Both the position numbers and the translations under genes were made by a program. Positions 811 to 20,320 of a stretch of 20,660 nucleotides of DNA are shown here, in pieces. The stretch comes from a virus. The stretch spans positions 1 to 20,660 of the IMG/VR virus record IMGVR_UViG_3300042923_000448; one strand, written 5' to 3'. The first letter of the stretch is position 1. Every line of letters starts with the position of its first letter. A model generated the notes under the pieces. That model had not been told where the DNA came from. It made no database searches and saw only the letters and a program-made list of their open reading frames with translations.

Positions 811-1095
811 ATGAACGCTCAGAAGTACCGCAAGAAGCCCGTCGTCATCGAGGCCATACAGCTGACCGACAACTGGCGTGAGGTGTGTGACTGGGTGAAC
901 GCGCACACGGAGCGAGTCGACCCGTACCGTCCGACCGCGTACCTGCCCAGCGGCCCTGACGTGGACATCCTCATCGTCACACTTGAGGGCGATATGCGGG
1001 CCGTTCCTGGTGACTACATCATCCGGGGCGTGCAGGGGGAGTTCTATCCCTGCAAGCCCGACATCTTCGCGCAGACGTATGAGCGAGCCGACTGA
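811..1095 (+). CDS. Conserved phage protein, KYRKKP family (copy 1)
   Basis: A 94-aa protein of a family found across many unrelated phages and prophages. Its hallmarks are KYRKKPVVIEA near the N-terminus and PGDYIIRGVQGEFYPCKPD near the C-terminus, followed by IF and a TYE-like end. The molecular function is, as far as I know, not established. The single Cys is in the YPCKPD motif. A second copy at 11421-11696 matches at 80 of 90 aligned residues, and the two genes share a perfect run of 45 bases. This copy has a 4-residue extension (MNAQ) that copy 2 lacks. Its stop TGA shares its last base with the next gene's ATG, suggesting coupled translation. Confidence 0.9.
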   Translation: MNAQKYRKKPVVIEAIQLTDNWREVCDWVNAHTERVDPYRPTAYLPSGPDVDILIVTLEGDMRAVPGDYIIRGVQGEFYPCKPDIFAQTYERAD

Positions 1096-9188: not shown

Positions 9189-9471
9189 CGTGCTGCCTGC
9201 GTACCGTCACTTCGCGTCTCGAGATCTGTGCGGCCGTGCGATCGACGCCGGCTGGGCTGTCTTATGGAAGCCGCAGGAGGACACGGGCGGGAATCCGTTC
9301 ATCGTCGTGGAGGGCATGTCGGGCGACCGTTGGTTCTCTGCCGCCTGGCACACGCGTGACACGGGCAGCTACCGGTTCTGGCAGGGGAGCGTCGGAAGCA
9401 AGCACCGCCCGAGGACGGTGTCACTGAAGCGTTTGATCGAGTACGTGGAGGGGGTTTCTAGTGTCGGGTGA
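9181..9471 (+). CDS. Hypothetical protein (96 aa)
   Basis: A 96-aa protein. GTG 9181 follows GGGAG at 9171-9175 and overlaps the previous gene by 8 bases. The sequence suggests a small alpha/beta domain: LPAYRHFASRDLCGRAIDAG (helical), AVLWKPQEDTGGNPFIVVEG and DRWFSAAWHTRDTGSYRFWQ (strands), then a basic segment (SKHRPRTVSLKRLIEYVEG) ending in a helix. It is rich in Trp and Arg, with one Cys only. No domain is recognised. It overlaps the following gene by 11 bases. Confidence 0.68.
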   Translation: MADVLPAYRHFASRDLCGRAIDAGWAVLWKPQEDTGGNPFIVVEGMSGDRWFSAAWHTRDTGSYRFWQGSVGSKHRPRTVSLKRLIEYVEGVSSVG

Positions 9472-10093
9472 ACAGAACGAACTACTCGAAGCAGTCGACG
9501 AGCTCACGAAACGGGCAGTGCTGCATCAGACCGTTGCGGAGTCCCGGTTCACGTGTGTCGTGTTCGACCAGTCCCTCCTCGAACGCCTCGAGTCCGAGAT
9601 CCGGTTCTCGTTGAGTCGTGAGGGGGCCAAGAGCCTCCCGAATCAGCGGGTGCCGATCAACTCTGGTGCGCTCATGTTGTTCATGCGGATCAGTAGTCAG
9701 ATCACGGATTGGGCGCACGGGGTGAAGGCGGCTGTGTATAAGGGTGACCCTGCGCGGACGTTGCGGGCATGGTTCGTGGCGTGGTCGCAGGGGAACCGGG
9801 AGGCGGGGGAGGTGGCGGCACGGGTCCGCCTCCTCCACGGGTGGGCCGCATCCATCCGCCGCGAACTCGACCCACCCCGCCGACGCGAACTCCCCGACCC
9901 ATGCCCCGCCTGTGGGGCACACGAATACTGGCGAGACGGGGAACGCCTACCGAAACCTCTTGTCGTTGAGATCCCGAGGAACCCGGAACAGTCCCTCATC
10001 GACGAATCGTCCGCGGCTTGTCGTGCGTGCGACAAGCGGTGGGGAGCAAGAGAACTCGCCTACGAACTAGAACATAGGAGCCCCGATGGCTGA
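9461..10093 (+). CDS. Hypothetical protein with C-terminal zinc ribbon (210 aa)
   Basis: A 210-aa protein from GTG 9461, with GGAGGGGG at about 9448-9455. Residues 1-140 are mostly helical: LLEAVDELTKRAVLHQ, SLLERLESEIRFSL, a middle with SGALMLFMRISSQITDWAHG, and LRAWFVAWSQGNREAGEVAARVRLLHGWAASIRREL. Residues 148-190 carry a zinc ribbon (CPAC at 148-151 and CRAC at 187-190). Similar proteins with a helical body and a zinc tail occur in actinophages without known function. Base usage changes sharply inside the gene at about 9830, from G-ending to C-ending codons. It overlaps the next small gene by 8 bases. Confidence 0.75.
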   Translation: MSGEQNELLEAVDELTKRAVLHQTVAESRFTCVVFDQSLLERLESEIRFSLSREGAKSLPNQRVPINSGALMLFMRISSQITDWAHGVKAAVYKGDPARTLRAWFVAWSQGNREAGEVAARVRLLHGWAASIRRELDPPRRRELPDPCPACGAHEYWRDGERLPKPLVVEIPRNPEQSLIDESSAACRACDKRWGARELAYELEHRSPDG

Positions 10094-10232
10094 ATCCTCC
10101 GCGTCCGCTCACGTCTCCCACCACCACGAGGACGGCGCCGGTTGGCCGTGCCCCGAAACCGTCGACACGGACGGTCGGGTCCGCGGTCGCTGCATCGCAC
10201 CTGAACTCTTCACCGAACGAAAGGCAAGTTGA
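10086..10232 (+). CDS. Very small protein before the VUT transporter (48 aa)
   Basis: A 48-aa protein read from ATG 10086, overlapping the zinc-ribbon protein by 8 bases and ending TGA at 10230-10232, whose last base starts the transporter ATG. It has a His/Ser-rich start (SASAHVSHHHEDG), two cysteines (C22, C36) in GWPCPETVDTD and RVRGRCIAPE, and a polar tail. The two Cys and the HHH could bind a metal. No family is recognised. Its one-base overlap with the transporter gene suggests it is co-translated with that cassette. Confidence 0.55.
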   Translation: MAESSASAHVSHHHEDGAGWPCPETVDTDGRVRGRCIAPELFTERKAS

Positions 10233-10798
10233 TGAACACCACAGGCAAGCGGGTCACTGGATGGATTCTGGTGGCCGTTTTCATTTCCACGGTCGTACTG
10301 GCGAACGTACTCACCACCCACTTCGGGTTCGTCCCGGTCGGGTTCGGGTTCATGGCCACGGCGGGAACGTTCGTAGCCGGCGCGACCCTCGCACTCCGAG
10401 ACGGGGTACAGGACACCCTCGGCAGGCGGGTGGTACTCGGGGCGATCCTTGCAGGTGCCGCCCTGTCGTTCGCAATGTCGGCACCGTTCATCGCACTCGC
10501 ATCGGTGGTCGCGTTCGTTGTCTCCGAGCTCGCTGACTACGCCGTGTACACGCCGATCCGGAAGCGTGCACGGTTCGGTGACGCCAAGTGGGCCATCGCT
10601 GTAGCCGCCTCCACCGTCGTGGGGGCTGTGGTCGACACGGTCCTGTTCCTCGGGATCGCGTTCGGTCCCGCAGCGATCATCCCGGCACTCCCGGGGCAGT
10701 TGGTGGGTAAGGCGTGGGCGATGCTCGCGTTCCTTCTGATCGGGTGGGGGGTCTCACGTGTGGTACTTCGCAAACCCGTCAACCCCGCAAGTACGTGA
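10232..10798 (+). CDS. yhhQ: VUT-family queuosine-precursor transporter (YhhQ-like)
   Basis: A 188-aa integral membrane protein of the VUT/YhhQ family. ATG 10232 overlaps the previous stop. Five to six hydrophobic segments are visible (about 10-27, 35-55, 68-90, 115-138, 142-178). Family motifs include ANVLTTHFG, an AGATLALRDGVQDTLGRR segment at about 50-67, and ADYAVYTPIRKR. E. coli YhhQ imports preQ0/preQ1, the deazaguanine precursors of tRNA queuosine. Phages carrying this gene often pair it with a DpdA that puts such a base into DNA. Here the next gene, overlapping by 41 bases, is exactly such a candidate. No preQ0-synthesis gene (queC, queD, queE or folE) is in the window, so the base is probably taken from host or medium. 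Confidence 0.9.
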   Translation: MNTTGKRVTGWILVAVFISTVVLANVLTTHFGFVPVGFGFMATAGTFVAGATLALRDGVQDTLGRRVVLGAILAGAALSFAMSAPFIALASVVAFVVSELADYAVYTPIRKRARFGDAKWAIAVAASTVVGAVVDTVLFLGIAFGPAAIIPALPGQLVGKAWAMLAFLLIGWGVSRVVLRKPVNPAST

Positions 10799-11363
10799 AC
10801 GGATGAGCGCAGGAGAGCTTGGTTGCATCGTCACGCCCCGTCAAGGAAACAAGATCCCGGACGGGGCGTTCTTCTGCGCCGACAACGGCGTATTCGGCAA
10901 GGGATACCCGGGGGAAGACGCCTGGTGGGAGTGGCTAAGTTCACTCCCACCAGAGCGTTGCCTGTTCGCCGTCGCACCCGATGTGGTCGGGGACGCCGCA
11001 GCAACGTTGGTCACGGCAACCCCGTGGCTGCCCCGCATCCGCGAACTGGGTATCCCTGCCGCATTCGTCGCACAGGACGGCGCCGAAACGGTCGGTGTCC
11101 CGTGGGACGAGTTCGACTGGCTGTTCATCGGCGGGTCAACGGAATGGAAGCTCGGGCCACACGCTCGAGCCTTCACCGCGGAAGCGAAGAAGCGGGGCAA
11201 GCAAGTCCACATGGGCCGCGTCAACTCCGCTACCAGAATGCGGTTCGCGAACGCCATCGGCTGCGATTCCGCAGACGGCACTTTTATCACCTTTGGCCCT
11301 GATGTGAATCTGCCAAAGGTGCTGGGTTGGTTGCGTCAGGTCCACGCACCGACGCTGTTTTGA
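10758..11363 (+). CDS. dpdA: DpdA-like DNA transglycosylase (TGT superfamily)
   Basis: A 201-aa protein from GTG 10758 with a GGGTGGGGGG site just upstream. It has the motif order of tRNA-guanine transglycosylases: ADNGVF (D42) in place of TDSGGFQ, VAPDVVGD (D75), FVAQDG (Q106) as in VVQGG, FIGGSTEWKLG (124-133) as in GGLAVGE, and HMGRVNSATRMRFANAIG followed by CDSADGTF, where D173 aligns with the catalytic Asp of TGT. The C-terminal zinc site of tRNA enzymes is absent and the protein is about half their length, as in phage DpdA-type enzymes that exchange guanine in DNA for a 7-deazaguanine. I think it belongs to the DpdA2 group, with less certainty. Product and sequence target are not readable. 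Confidence 0.85.
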   Translation: MWYFANPSTPQVRERMSAGELGCIVTPRQGNKIPDGAFFCADNGVFGKGYPGEDAWWEWLSSLPPERCLFAVAPDVVGDAAATLVTATPWLPRIRELGIPAAFVAQDGAETVGVPWDEFDWLFIGGSTEWKLGPHARAFTAEAKKRGKQVHMGRVNSATRMRFANAIGCDSADGTFITFGPDVNLPKVLGWLRQVHAPTLF

Positions 11364-11373
11364 AAGGAACACC

Positions 11374-11424
11374 ATGCTTGCGAAGTACCACGACGAACTC
11401 AAAGCCTGGCTGGAGACGAAATGA
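11374..11424 (+). CDS. Mini-ORF (16 aa), probable gene remnant
   Basis: ATG 11374 has GAAAGGA at 11362-11368 and encodes only 16 residues ending YHDELKAWLETK before TGA 11422-11424, which overlaps the ATG of the KYRKKP copy 2. Its last part is a perfect 25-base match (11392-11416) to 14230-14254, the end of the membrane-protein gene at 14077 (EDELKAWLE). It therefore looks like the tail of such a gene, refitted with a start and ribosome site, and may serve mainly to couple translation of copy 2. Confidence 0.45.
   Translation: MLAKYHDELKAWLETK
11392..11416 (+). repeat. 25-bp perfect direct repeat, unit A (partner 14230-14254)
   Basis: The bases at 11392-11416 are identical to 14230-14254 and encode DELKAWLE in both places. 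The first copy precedes KYRKKP copy 2, the second ends the 61-aa membrane-protein gene. It looks like a trace of recombination between related gene cassettes. Confidence 0.85.
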
Positions 11425-11696
11425 AGTACCGCAAGAAGCCAGCCGTCATCGAGGCCATGCAACTGACCGACAACTGGCGTGAGGTGTGTGACTGGGTGAA
11501 CGCGCACGCGGAGCGAGTCGATCCGTACCGCCCGAGTGCCTACCTGCCCAGCGGCCCTGACGCGGACATCCTCATCGTCACACTGGAGGGCGATATGCGG
11601 GCCGTTCCTGGCGACTACATCATCCGCGGCGTGCAGGGCGAGTTCTACCCGTGCAAGCCCGACATCTTCGAGGCGACATACGACTTGGCCGAGTAG
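11421..11696 (+). CDS. Conserved phage protein, KYRKKP family (copy 2)
   Basis: A 91-aa paralogue of the protein at 811-1095, starting at ATG 11421 in an ATGA overlap with the mini-ORF. It agrees with copy 1 at 80 of 90 aligned residues. The substitutions are mild except near the C-terminus (IFEATYDLAE versus IFAQTYERAD). The DNA has a perfect 45-base match and scattered, mostly silent changes elsewhere, so both copies appear to be maintained as proteins. Function unknown. It is the last gene before the promoter-terminator module, at the end of the early gene block. Having two copies in one genome is unusual and implies recent duplication or horizontal gain of the second. Confidence 0.9.
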   Translation: MKYRKKPAVIEAMQLTDNWREVCDWVNAHAERVDPYRPSAYLPSGPDADILIVTLEGDMRAVPGDYIIRGVQGEFYPCKPDIFEATYDLAE

Positions 11697-11699
11697 GTA

Positions 11700-11728
11700 T
11701 TGCGTACGAACGTTCGTGTGTGTATAAT
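11700..11728 (+). promoter_or_regulatory. Consensus housekeeping-type promoter
   Basis: TTGCGT (11700-11705) as -35 and a perfect TATAAT (11723-11728) as -10, with a 17-base spacer, the ideal distance. The likely start site is A11736. It is by far the best promoter I can find in the window. The spacer contains a 12-bp palindrome, so it may be repressible. It directs transcription into a terminator about 65 bases on. Confidence 0.8.
11706..11717. promoter_or_regulatory. 12-bp palindromic operator candidate
   Basis: ACGAACGTTCGT is a perfect palindrome lying wholly in the promoter spacer, so a bound dimer would block RNA polymerase. It resembles but is not the actinobacterial SOS box, which needs four bases between GAAC and GTTC. 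The binding protein is unknown; small HTH proteins at 4197, 4545 or 12006 are candidates. Confidence 0.5.
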
Positions 11729-11735
11729 CGACCCC

Positions 11736-11802
11736 AGGTGGTTGAAGCACGCCTTCACACCGAAGTTCTCACCCCGTTGACACTGTCGGCGGGGTCTTTT
11801 CG
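11736..11802 (+). ncRNA. Putative 65-70-nt small RNA or terminated leader
   Basis: Transcription from the promoter at 11700-11728 should start near 11736 and stop at the terminator ending near 11800. The RNA would begin with a hairpin: GGTG (11737-11740) and TGAAG (11743-11747), with a 2-nt bulge between, pair with CTTCA (11753-11757) and CACC (11758-11761) around a 5-nt loop. A 9-nt linker and the terminator stem follow. It could be a free small RNA or the aborted leader of the downstream genes. No ORF fits inside. The existence of the transcript is inferred from signals, not seen. Confidence 0.6.
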
Positions 11803-11804
11803 TT
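11771..11804 (+). terminator. Rho-independent terminator
   Basis: ACCCCG (11771-11776) pairs with CGGGGT (11790-11795), and an inner GACA/TGTC stem (11779-11782/11784-11787) is separated by a TT/GG internal loop. The T-rich run CTTTTCGTT follows directly. This is a standard intrinsic terminator for + strand transcription, only about 65 bases after the likely start of transcription. Confidence 0.75.
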
Positions 11805-12005
11805 AACAGACCTCCTCGGTAGTCGTGCGCGGCATAACCGGGTTGCAGGATGGCGCGCCCAGGAGCGCGCCGGCACAACAGTGAGCCAAGACCGCAAACC
11901 GCGCGAGCTCCACACAGGCCCGAGCCGGGTAAAGCCGTTGGCGGGCCACACCCTTTCTTTCCGTCGCTTCCCCTGCGTCGGGGGAGCCCAATCACGGGGG
12001 TAACC

Positions 12006-12230
12006 GTGGCACTCGACAACCTTCGCGCCGACCTTGAAGAAGCGCGCCGACAGAAGCCCGCAACGTTCGCCGCGTGGCTGGAAACCGCCGACCCCACCAC
12101 TGTGGGGCTCGTCATGGAATACATCACCGACACGGGTGTGATGATTGACCCGTTGGTGGCGAAGTTGCGGAAGAACGAGATCCCCATTACGCGGGAGACG
12201 GTGGAGAAGTACCGTGACGCGCGGGGCTGA
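12006..12230 (+). CDS. Small HTH DNA-binding protein before phosphoesterase
   Basis: A 74-aa protein. GTG 12006 follows CGGGGGTAACC; longer in-frame starts up to 11850 give an unlikely Arg/Pro-rich extension, so I reject them. The pattern ALDNLRADLEEARRQKPATFAAWLET, a short acidic turn, then DPLVAKLRKNEIPITRETVEKYRDARG matches small proteins that, in actinophages, regularly precede a metallophosphoesterase. The final part is a helix-turn-helix (LVAKLRKNEIPITRETVEKY). It is usually annotated as an HTH or terminase-associated protein. A homing nuclease gene now separates it from its usual partner (12687). It may bind DNA in packaging or regulation. Confidence 0.7.
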   Translation: MALDNLRADLEEARRQKPATFAAWLETADPTTVGLVMEYITDTGVMIDPLVAKLRKNEIPITRETVEKYRDARG

Positions 12231-12690
12231 GGGTATCGCCGGGCGCTTTTGGGCGCGGGTGGAGAAGGATGCCGAATGCTGGAAGTGGACCGGCTCGCAC
12301 GCTCGCGGGTATGGGTACCTCTGGACGGCAGGCCGTAAGCGCGTCTACGCCCACCGCATCTCCTACACGCTGGCCCACGGGGAAATTCCAGAAGGCGCGA
12401 TGGTGGATCACATCTGCCACAACCGCGGATGCGTGAATCCGGATCACCTCCGGCTCGCATCGAACAAGCAGAACCTCGAGAACCTTGGGGGTCTGTACGC
12501 CTCGAACACGTCTGGCTTTCGCGGTGTGACACGGCGGCGCAACGGTACTTGGCAGGCCGAAGTCACGCACAACGGCTCCAAGCGGTATCTGGGCGTCTTC
12601 GCGACCGCGGAGGACGCCGCAACCGCAGCGGCCTCCGCGCGGATGGACCTGTTCACGCACAACGTGGCAGACCGAGGGGCCGAGAAATGA
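12214..12690 (+). CDS. HNH homing endonuclease with AP2 domain
   Basis: A 158-aa protein. GTG 12214 has GGAG at 12203-12206, inside the end of the HTH gene (17-base overlap). The HNH_3-type nuclease spans about 12-90: FWARVEKDAECWKWTGS, GYGYLW, AHRISYTLAHGEIPEG, and the core VDHICHNRGCVNPDHL with C68, H69, C73 and H78 as metal ligands. Residues 100-142 form an AP2-like DNA-binding domain (SGFRGVTRRRNGTWQAEVTH, then LGVFATAEDAATAA). The HNH-AP2 pairing is typical of homing nucleases. It sits exactly between two genes that are normally adjacent, and its stop overlaps the ATG of the phosphoesterase (ATGA at 12687), which is a neat, non-disruptive insertion. Confidence 0.9.
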   Translation: MTRGAEGIAGRFWARVEKDAECWKWTGSHARGYGYLWTAGRKRVYAHRISYTLAHGEIPEGAMVDHICHNRGCVNPDHLRLASNKQNLENLGGLYASNTSGFRGVTRRRNGTWQAEVTHNGSKRYLGVFATAEDAATAAASARMDLFTHNVADRGAEK

Positions 12691-13838
12691 CGCTCGCTGA
12701 TGACCTGGACGCGTTGACCGTCCCGACACCGCCGAAGAAGTTCCAGCAGCACGCCGAGTTCGACGAGAACGGCGGCACCGCTGCAACCGGGCCGGTGCGC
12801 CGCGTGGTCACCGACTACCGGGAACTCCTCACCCTCGCCGGCCTCGACCCCGACGCCTTCCGCATCGTCGGGAAAGTCAGTCAGTGGTCCAAGACCCACC
12901 ACGACAAAGAAGACACCTACAGTTTCTTCTTCACCTTTGAAGCCCTCACGGCCGGTGAAGAAGCCCTAGACCTACCTGCCCTCTACTCCGAAGCAAGACG
13001 CAAACCGCGAAACCCCGTCACCACGAGGGGTACGGCTGACAGCCGAGTTACTGTCGTTGCACTTTCGGATGTTCAGGCGGGCAAGGTGGACCACCGCGGC
13101 GGGACCCCTGAACTCATCGACCGGCTCGCCGGGATGAGGGAACGTCTCGCCGCGCACCTCAAAGCCCGGAAACCGCAAGCCACCGTGCTAGCCGAAGTCG
13201 GGGATCTCTTTGAGGGGTTCGAGTCCGGCGGTAACCCAATGTTCACCAACGACCTGTCGTTGGCGCAGCAGATGGACCTTGCCGGCACTGAGGTTTACCG
13301 GTTCGTGGAGGTCATGCAACGCCACGGACGGGTCGACGTTGTCTGTATCCCTTCGAATCACACCGCATGGCGGTCAGGGAAGCAGCAGCTCGGGCGCCCC
13401 GGCGACGACCTCGGACTGTTCGTCCACAAGCAAGTACAGAAACTCGCCAACGCGGCAGGGATCGACGCTCACTGGACCTACCCGGACATGTTCGACGAGT
13501 CCGTGGTCATCGATATCCTCGGCACCGGGCTTGGTGTGGTTCATGGTAACCAGTTCAACCCCGGCCAGGCCGTCACATGGTGGCAGAAGCAGCAGCACGG
13601 TGGGATGCCTACCGCACGCGCTGACATCCTTCTTACTGGCCACTATCACCACCTGACTGTGCTTCCGTCCGGGCGTAACCCGTCCACGGGGAAGTCGAAG
13701 TGGTGGTTGCAGGCGCCGACGACGGATAACGGTTCGTCGTGGTTCCGGAACGTTGGTGGCGGGGATTCGGATGCGGGGCTGCTCGTGTTCGACATCACTG
13801 AGGATGGGTTCGACCTCTCGAGCCTCACCGTCCTCTGA
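12687..13838 (+). CDS. Calcineurin-like metallophosphoesterase
   Basis: A 383-aa protein from ATG 12687 (ATGA overlap). The N-terminal 115 residues are a phage-specific domain (DYRELLTLAGLDPDAFRIVGKVSQW, TYSFFFTFEA). Residues 120-345 form a metallophosphoesterase: LSDVQAGK (D128, Q130 for the usual DxH), AEVGDLFEG (D173), PSNHTAWRSG (N224, H225, with Ser for Gly), VVHGNQ (H286), and TGHYHH (H319, H321). The motif I substitution D-x-Q is also seen in phage relatives. Such enzymes may cut nucleic acid or nucleotides; in actinophages this gene is sometimes called a DNA-binding or MRE11-like protein. The substrate is unknown. It is the largest gene between the helicase and terminase. Confidence 0.85.
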   Translation: MTLADDLDALTVPTPPKKFQQHAEFDENGGTAATGPVRRVVTDYRELLTLAGLDPDAFRIVGKVSQWSKTHHDKEDTYSFFFTFEALTAGEEALDLPALYSEARRKPRNPVTTRGTADSRVTVVALSDVQAGKVDHRGGTPELIDRLAGMRERLAAHLKARKPQATVLAEVGDLFEGFESGGNPMFTNDLSLAQQMDLAGTEVYRFVEVMQRHGRVDVVCIPSNHTAWRSGKQQLGRPGDDLGLFVHKQVQKLANAAGIDAHWTYPDMFDESVVIDILGTGLGVVHGNQFNPGQAVTWWQKQQHGGMPTARADILLTGHYHHLTVLPSGRNPSTGKSKWWLQAPTTDNGSSWFRNVGGGDSDAGLLVFDITEDGFDLSSLTVL

Positions 13839-20291: not shown

Positions 20292-20320
20292 AGGCGACCT
20301 GTGACGGGTCGCCTTTTTCT
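20292..20320 (+). terminator. Intrinsic terminator between MuF and scaffold genes
   Basis: AGGCGACC (20292-20299) pairs perfectly with GGTCGCCT (20307-20314), around a 7-base loop, followed by TTTTTCT. This is a textbook rho-independent terminator, yet it lies in the middle of the head operon. It may be partial and set the relative level of upstream (terminase/portal/MuF) and downstream (scaffold/capsid) transcripts. No clear promoter is seen between it and the scaffold start. Confidence 0.85.

What the first reader, a model, noticed from the sequence alone, without database searches (positions are those of the whole stretch)
11700..11804. Consensus promoter that meets a terminator after about 65 nt
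A near-perfect promoter (TTGCGT-17-TATAAT) at the early/late boundary makes a transcript starting with a hairpin and ending in an intrinsic terminator, 200 bases before the next gene. Two readings are possible: a small regulatory RNA, or an analogue of lambda pR'-tR', where late genes need an antiterminator to pass the stop. I know of no such description for this module. It is the only strong promoter I find in 20 kb.
Basis: partly seen in the sequence, partly recalled or inferred. Interest (0 to 1): 0.72.

Follow-up and report, generated by a model that had tools for sequence, protein, structure and literature searches.

The report
Phage late promoter guarded by terminator
The strong phage promoter that runs into a stop signal about 65 bases later is real and is kept, stop signal included, in dozens of related viruses of actinobacteria beside one uncharacterised zinc-ribbon gene, so it looks like an on/off gate for the virus's late genes, built like phage lambda's but with different parts.

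Summary
TTGCGT-17-TATAAT (11700-11728) is the best promoter-like site in the window, and the stem at 11771-11795 (-17.6 kcal/mol, then CTTTTCG) is among its best terminators. Relatives show an architecture, not an accident: in about 45 diverse actinophages and prophages a promoter is followed after 3-67 nt by an intrinsic terminator. Promoter, hairpin and terminator sequences are swapped between relatives; the order is kept. A DUF7341/DUF7340 (phrog_1467) zinc-ribbon gene ends at the promoter in about half; in the window three cargo genes intervene. The transcribed part carries a motif (roughly AAGTGYGYCnAAA) at a nearly fixed place, with TGYG near +13 to +16, close to where the lambda late promoter pauses. 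Downstream lie a structured leader, a 74-aa ORF, MRE11, HNH, terminase and structural genes, with no other strong promoter. Best reading: a pR'-tR'-like late gate opened by an antiterminator, for which phrog_1467 is the candidate; no homology to lambda or phage 21 Q was found. All evidence is sequence-based; no transcript or antitermination has been measured. A small-RNA role is not excluded: one relative's terminator is an Rfam abiF RNA.

The parts
9461..10093 (+). DUF7341 + DUF7340 protein (phrog_1467), helical N-domain and 4-Cys zinc ribbon; candidate antiterminator/late regulator
   Evidence: Pfam, PHROGs; upstream of the cassette in 40 of 41 loci scored, L146 being the exception; AlphaFold pLDDT 86.9
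10229..11696 (+). cargo genes between regulator and promoter: Vut_1 transporter (10229-10798), phrog_15826 (10758-11363), phrog_419 (11421-11696)
   Evidence: the cargo differs between relatives
11700..11705 (+). -35 element TTGCGT
11706..11717 (+). palindrome ACGAACGTTCGT in the spacer, operator-like; sequence differs among relatives
11723..11728 (+). -10 element TATAAT; predicted start of transcription about 11735
   Evidence: start inferred
11737..11761 (+). 5' hairpin GGTGgtTGAAGcacgcCTTCACACC
   Evidence: fold; 5' hairpins in relatives
11747..11759 (+). window copy (GCACGCCTTCACA, weak match) of the motif AAGTGYGYCnAAA, placed as a promoter-proximal pause; GG at 11740-11741 and CG at 11750-11751
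   Evidence: pause role inferred
11771..11803 (+). intrinsic terminator, stem 11771-11795 and T tract
11805..12005 (+). conserved structured leader RNA; helices about 11917-11948 (GCCCGAGCC/GGCGGGC) and 11966-11987
   Evidence: no Rfam match
12006..12230 (+). first gene after the leader, 74-aa protein, no family match
12145..12690 (+). HNH endonuclease ORF between the 74-aa ORF and MRE11
12684..13838 (+). MRE11-like exonuclease (phrog_284), marker gene used to find relatives
20292..20320 (+). second strong intrinsic terminator, inside the late operon after the MuF-like gene

Best explanation
It is a late-operon gate built like lambda pR'-tR'. Host RNA polymerase starts at about 11735 from a strong promoter, probably pauses at about +16, and without help stops at the terminator, giving a short RNA of about 65 nt. 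When the phage has made its late regulator, polymerase is modified near the promoter and reads through the terminator. It then passes the structured leader and transcribes the 74-aa ORF, MRE11, the HNH gene, terminase and the structural genes. The candidate antiterminator is the DUF7341/DUF7340 (phrog_1467) zinc-ribbon protein encoded at 9461-10093. Shown: the anatomy, its conservation with exchange of parts, the gene linkage, the fixed-distance motif and the lack of another strong promoter. Inferred: the pause, the read-through, and the identity of the antiterminator (about 0.4 for phrog_1467 itself).
For: Promoter followed by terminator at the same place in most relatives with the region, down to about 47-52% MRE11 identity, including Leifsonia and Arthrobacter prophages. 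Promoter scores beat same-locus background over 41 loci scored (Fisher 1e-27; not phylogenetically independent). Promoter, hairpin and terminator types are shuffled between genomes that share a leader. phrog_1467 sits upstream in 40 of these 41 loci and ends within about -53 to +30 nt of the -35 in about half. Out of sample, the same order follows this gene in Gordonia phages Birdsong and Squiddly, with GMA1, Phistory and Kukla as weaker cases, and in three or four of nine Microbacteriaceae prophages chosen by DUF7341 alone. Transcribed motif LL 101.7 against at most 61.2 in shuffles; YGYSYC 19 of 27 occurrences at 18-24 nt after the -10, shuffles expect 2.5. Upstream motif GCGACACGC LL 73 against at most 45 in shuffles. 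Late genes follow and run across the record ends in Footloose. Further strong terminators lie inside late operons. Known antiterminators Q, AlpA and GafZ use this anatomy; AlpA's terminator begins 54 nt from the start (PMC6606751, PMC9371919, PMC7969949, PMC11150451).
Against: No transcript data of any kind. phrog_1467 has no detectable homology to the Q21 or lambda Q Pfam models (Q82 not tested), and its fold search gives no informative match. Near-identical phrog_1467 proteins go with different spacer palindromes, so the palindrome is probably not its binding site. A -10-like element at +1 to +6 is not consistently present. Out of sample, several loci with this gene lack the arrangement (Che8, Mendokysei, prophiGD91-2, L199, L200, L203), and the prophage test is small (4 of 9 against 2 of 15 controls). 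The window's own copy of the motif is weak.
Confidence: 0.58

Rival explanations
1. The short RNA itself is the product: a phage small RNA, for instance an antidote or decoy for RNA-bound host defence proteins, made from a strong promoter and ended by its own terminator.
For: In relative L108 the terminator hairpin at this place is an Rfam abiF RNA (43.4 bits, gathering score 37; exact GCCUCUCAACGA) while no Abi_2 gene was found in that record; abiF-motif RNA neutralises AbiF in trans in C. difficile (PMC12373285). The cassettes are swapped between genomes as defence-related modules are.
Against: Only 1 of 36 records matches abiF RNA and the window does not. Hairpin sequences fall into several unrelated types between relatives, whereas order and position are kept. 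There is no other strong promoter for the downstream genes.
Confidence: 0.17
2. Ordinary boundary: the terminator only ends the early operon and the promoter simply fires late genes under an activator or repressor, with enough leaky read-through; no antitermination.
For: All genes point the same way, so early transcripts must be ended somewhere. Operator-like palindromes lie in several promoters and a shared motif lies upstream of the -35.
Against: The order is promoter then terminator in all classes, which would waste the late promoter; terminators are strong (about -14 to -23 kcal/mol); the motif at about +13 to +19 has no role here.
Confidence: 0.16
3. Attenuator or riboswitch: an alternative RNA fold of the leader disrupts the terminator in response to a ligand or protein.
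For: A 5' hairpin precedes the terminator in many relatives.
Against: Pairing of the upstream RNA with the terminator's 5' arm is weaker than the terminator in 24 of 24 and above shuffle level in only 2 of 24; in many relatives the first hairpin is itself the terminator; no Rfam match.
Confidence: 0.06
4. Chance arrangement of a promoter-like and a terminator-like sequence.
For: Single sites of this kind occur by chance; terminator-like sites as a class are not enriched in the window (9 found, 10.9 expected).
Against: Conserved in position across dozens of diverged phages.
Confidence: 0.01

Closest known systems
Lambdoid Q - pR' - tR' (lambda, 21, 82)
   Same: regulator gene upstream of the late promoter, pause-like position near +16, terminator soon after the start, late genes beyond, transcription running on across the genome ends
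   Different: actinophages; regulator unrelated by sequence to the Q21 and lambda Q models; no consistent Q-type binding element or -10-like pause element found; conserved structured leader after the terminator
AlpA - PalpB - tB of Pseudomonas aeruginosa
   Same: promoter with a terminator a few tens of nt from the start and a specific regulator (PMC7969949, PMC9371919)
   Different: not a phage late operon; AlpA contacts a spacer element, here the spacer palindrome varies independently of phrog_1467; no homology shown
GafZ of the Caulobacter gene transfer agent
   Same: antiterminator unrelated to Q acting on a late-type phage gene cluster (PMC11150451)
   Different: its terminator lies after the first gene; works with GafY and IHF
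HK022 put RNA
   Same: phage leader RNA near terminators
   Different: put acts as RNA ahead of the terminators it suppresses; the conserved leader here lies after the first terminator
abiF RNA / AbiF (RF03085)
   Same: one relative carries an abiF motif as its terminator; C. difficile RCd22 is also a short leader RNA ending at a terminator (PMC12373285)
   Different: the window and the other 34 records have no such motif, and no Abi_2 gene was found in 20 records

Membership tests
Lambdoid Q-pR'-tR' late module | sigma70-type promoter followed by an intrinsic terminator before the first late gene | tested here: met
Lambdoid Q-pR'-tR' late module | antiterminator of a Q family (PF06530, PF03589, PF06323) encoded upstream | tested here: not met
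   PF06530 and PF03589 absent from the window and 15 relatives; PF06323 not tested; instead phrog_1467 is upstream
Lambdoid Q-pR'-tR' late module | regulator binding element between -35 and -10 | tested here: inconclusive
   palindrome in the window spacer, but inverted repeats only modestly enriched (7 of 42 at p<0.05, combined p 0.008) and variable with near-identical phrog_1467
Lambdoid Q-pR'-tR' late module | promoter-proximal pause from a -10-like element in the initial transcribed region | tested here: inconclusive
   TANNNT only in some; instead a TGYG-type motif at about +13 to +19
Lambdoid Q-pR'-tR' late module | late genes, across the genome ends, lie downstream | tested here: met
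   Footloose gene order, window ORFs
Lambdoid Q-pR'-tR' late module | regulator-dependent read-through | not testable with these tools
   needs transcription assays
AlpA-type antitermination | AlpA binding element GGGACG between -35 and -10 | tested here: not met
   the window spacer between TTGCGT and TATAAT does not contain it
GafZ-type antitermination | GafZ homologue | not tested
   no model of GafZ was searched
abiF RNA (RF03085) | covariance model score at or above 37 bits | tested here: not met
   window 0 matches; 1 of 36 records matches
Known Rfam leader or riboswitch | match to any Rfam 15 family | tested here: not met
   no match at gathering score or at E up to 5

The most novel reading that the evidence does not exclude
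DUF7341/DUF7340 (phrog_1467) zinc-ribbon proteins are a new family of phage antiterminators, unrelated to Q, that control late transcription in many actinobacteriophages through exchangeable promoter-pause-terminator cassettes.
Probability: 0.4. Interest if true: 0.8.

Novelty: new variant of a known kind. Interest (0 to 1): 0.62.

Why it matters
How actinobacteriophages switch to late transcription is poorly known, and my searches of the open-access library found no antiterminator described for them. If right, one uncharacterised gene family and one compact DNA cassette explain the switch in many phages, including cultured Microbacterium and Gordonia phages where it can be tested. It would add a further unrelated protein family to the same solution reached by Q, AlpA and GafZ.

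Tried and rejected
Rfam search of the window and leader: nothing. Attenuator by alternative pairing: not supported; an earlier version of that test used a constraint that blocked all pairing and is discarded. Spacer palindrome as the phrog_1467 binding site: disfavoured because near-identical proteins go with different palindromes. The small wHTH gene coupled to a phrog_1467 homologue in the TTGACA-promoter group first looked AlpA-like; it is an HTH_17/excisionase-type domain below the Pfam cut-off with no shown link to P. aeruginosa AlpA, so that link is dropped. DUF7341 'absent' from that group is corrected: a diverged homologue is present in the member tested (phrog_1467; weak profile match of the ribbon). 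Mycobacteriophage Giles, remembered for an abundant small RNA: no such arrangement in the region checked. Structure search of phrog_1467: no informative match; zinc ribbon weakly like Elf1 (Z 5.4-5.5), N-domain generic helices. A collection scan with phrog_1467 itself gave only one locus, already known. The genome scan with MRE11 gave two prophages. The tmRNA-like look of a stretch in L104 was not confirmed by ARAGORN or Rfam.

Full report
What is there. The window is a 20,660-base viral contig of an actinophage, with WhiB, SSB, MRE11-like, terminase, portal and MuF-like genes on the + strand. At 11700-11728 lies TTGCGT-17-TATAAT, at 11771-11795 a terminator stem of -17.6 kcal/mol followed by CTTTTCG, and the next ORF starts at 12006. 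The promoter is the best-scoring site in the window on either strand (15.6 against 14.0), and TTGN3-N16-18-TATAAT is expected 0.023 times in shuffles. The stricter consensus scan does not list it because the -35 matches TTGACA at only three positions. The spacer contains the window's only perfect 12-bp palindrome, ACGAACGTTCGT.

Relatives. The pattern CGAACGTTCGTN5TATAAT occurs in three other viral contigs. Searches with the downstream proteins gave about 80 further loci, two prophages in Leifsonia and Arthrobacter and Microbacterium phage Footloose. In most with enough sequence, a promoter is followed by an intrinsic terminator upstream of the small ORF and MRE11. Distances from -10 to terminator stem are 3-67 nt, median 35, in 42 non-redundant cassettes. 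In some the first hairpin is itself the terminator. The parts are exchanged: genomes sharing one leader type carry different promoters and terminators, and one terminator class is shared by Footloose, several contigs and Gordonia phage Birdsong. In that class the seven outer base pairs are kept in all eight distinct sequences, two of the pairs with compensatory changes. So position and order are selected, not sequence.

The linked gene. A DUF7341/DUF7340 protein (phrog_1467) is encoded upstream in 40 of 41 loci scored; the exception is L146, a distant homologue without the arrangement. In about half, its stop codon lies within about -53 to +30 nt of the -35. In the rest, including the window, cargo genes intervene, different in different phages. 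Only four cysteines and a few other positions are invariant. The AlphaFold model is confident (pLDDT 86.9): a helical N-domain and a zinc ribbon. It has no informative match among solved structures, and relatives are predicted in several other actinophages. A subgroup with mostly TTGACA promoters has a diverged zinc-ribbon protein (phrog_1467 in the member tested) followed by an overlapping small wHTH gene.

Out-of-sample test. In phages found through phrog_1467 alone, the promoter-hairpin-terminator order follows the gene directly in Gordonia phages Birdsong and Squiddly. GMA1, Phistory and Arthrobacter phage Kukla are weaker cases, and Che8, Mendokysei and prophiGD91-2 lack it. Among nine Microbacteriaceae genomes chosen by the Pfam model, it is clear in L202, L204 and L206, and by eye in L207. 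The automatic count is 4 of 9 (one of them, L205, doubtful) against 2 of 15 control ORF ends, which is suggestive only.

Sequence signals at fixed distance. In 42 non-redundant cassettes the transcribed part holds a motif close to AAGTGYGYCnAAA, likelihood 101.7 against a maximum of 61.2 in shuffles, mostly starting 15-19 nt after the -10. TGYG starts cluster at 19-22 nt, and YGYSYC falls at 18-24 nt in 19 of 27 occurrences against 2.5 expected. Counting the start of transcription as the seventh base after the -10, the pyrimidine of TGYG lies at about +15 to +18. TGYG is the 3' part of the elemental pause consensus, and lambda pR' pauses at +16/+17 (both from general knowledge). A fixed distance from the promoter suits a pause element better than a freely placed RNA-binding site. 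The window's copy is weak (GCACGCC), though it keeps GG-N8-CG at the right place. The -10 hexamers were partly assigned by eye. A second motif, GCGACACGC, lies 10-20 bp upstream of the -35 in many. Inverted repeats around the spacer are only modestly enriched and vary between phages with near-identical phrog_1467, so they are more likely operators for another regulator.

Downstream. The 200 nt after the terminator is a conserved structured RNA leader: 93.9% of cells pair against 37-56% when partners are slid, with compensatory changes in 7 of 16 pairs. It matches no Rfam family. In Footloose, L101 and L108 a tRNA-Leu gene lies in this region. No promoter-like site of comparable strength lies between the terminator and MRE11, so these genes must depend on read-through from this promoter or from upstream. 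[quoted passage not shown] Further strong terminators lie inside the late operons (window 20292-20314, Footloose 10011-10038), which a processive antiterminator would also overcome.

How it most likely works. The anatomy is that of known promoter-loaded antiterminators: Q (PMC6606751), AlpA, whose terminator begins 54 nt from the start (PMC7969949, PMC9371919), and GafZ (PMC11150451). I infer that polymerase starts at about 11735, pauses near +16, and stops at about +65 unless modified, and that the phrog_1467 protein is the likely modifier. Not shown: any transcript, pause, read-through or protein contact. It is not a member of the Q21 or lambda Q families. The attenuator reading is disfavoured. 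The small-RNA reading stays open, helped by the abiF RNA in one relative, with no Abi_2 gene found in that record.

Limits. Relatives share ancestry, so the combined p-values overstate the evidence. Many contigs are fragments. Promoter calls use a simple consensus score, not an actinobacterial model.

Noticed in passing
L108:5146-5181: The terminator hairpin of this relative is an Rfam abiF RNA (43.4 bits) although no Abi_2 gene was found in the record; possible decoy or antidote against AbiF.
   Followed up: partly
window 11805-12005: Conserved structured leader RNA with compensatory changes and no Rfam family; a tRNA-Leu gene lies in the same region in Footloose, L101 and L108.
   Followed up: partly
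window 10229-11363: Vut_1 transporter (family of vitamin/queuosine-precursor uptake) next to a phrog_15826 protein, as a cargo pair; by general knowledge possibly linked to modified guanine in DNA, not tested.
   Followed up: no
window 811-1095 and 11421-11696: Two clearly related copies of one small protein (phrog_419 in the second copy) in one contig.
   Followed up: no
window 1-20660: Only one perfect 12-bp palindrome is present where roughly 8-9 are expected from base composition, hinting at avoidance of palindromes.
   Followed up: no
window 20292-20314; Footloose (L179) 10011-10038: Strong intrinsic terminators inside the late operons.
   Followed up: partly
L104, within 1000 nt upstream of MRE11: A stretch in the leader looks tmRNA-like to the eye, but ARAGORN and Rfam do not call it.
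   Followed up: partly
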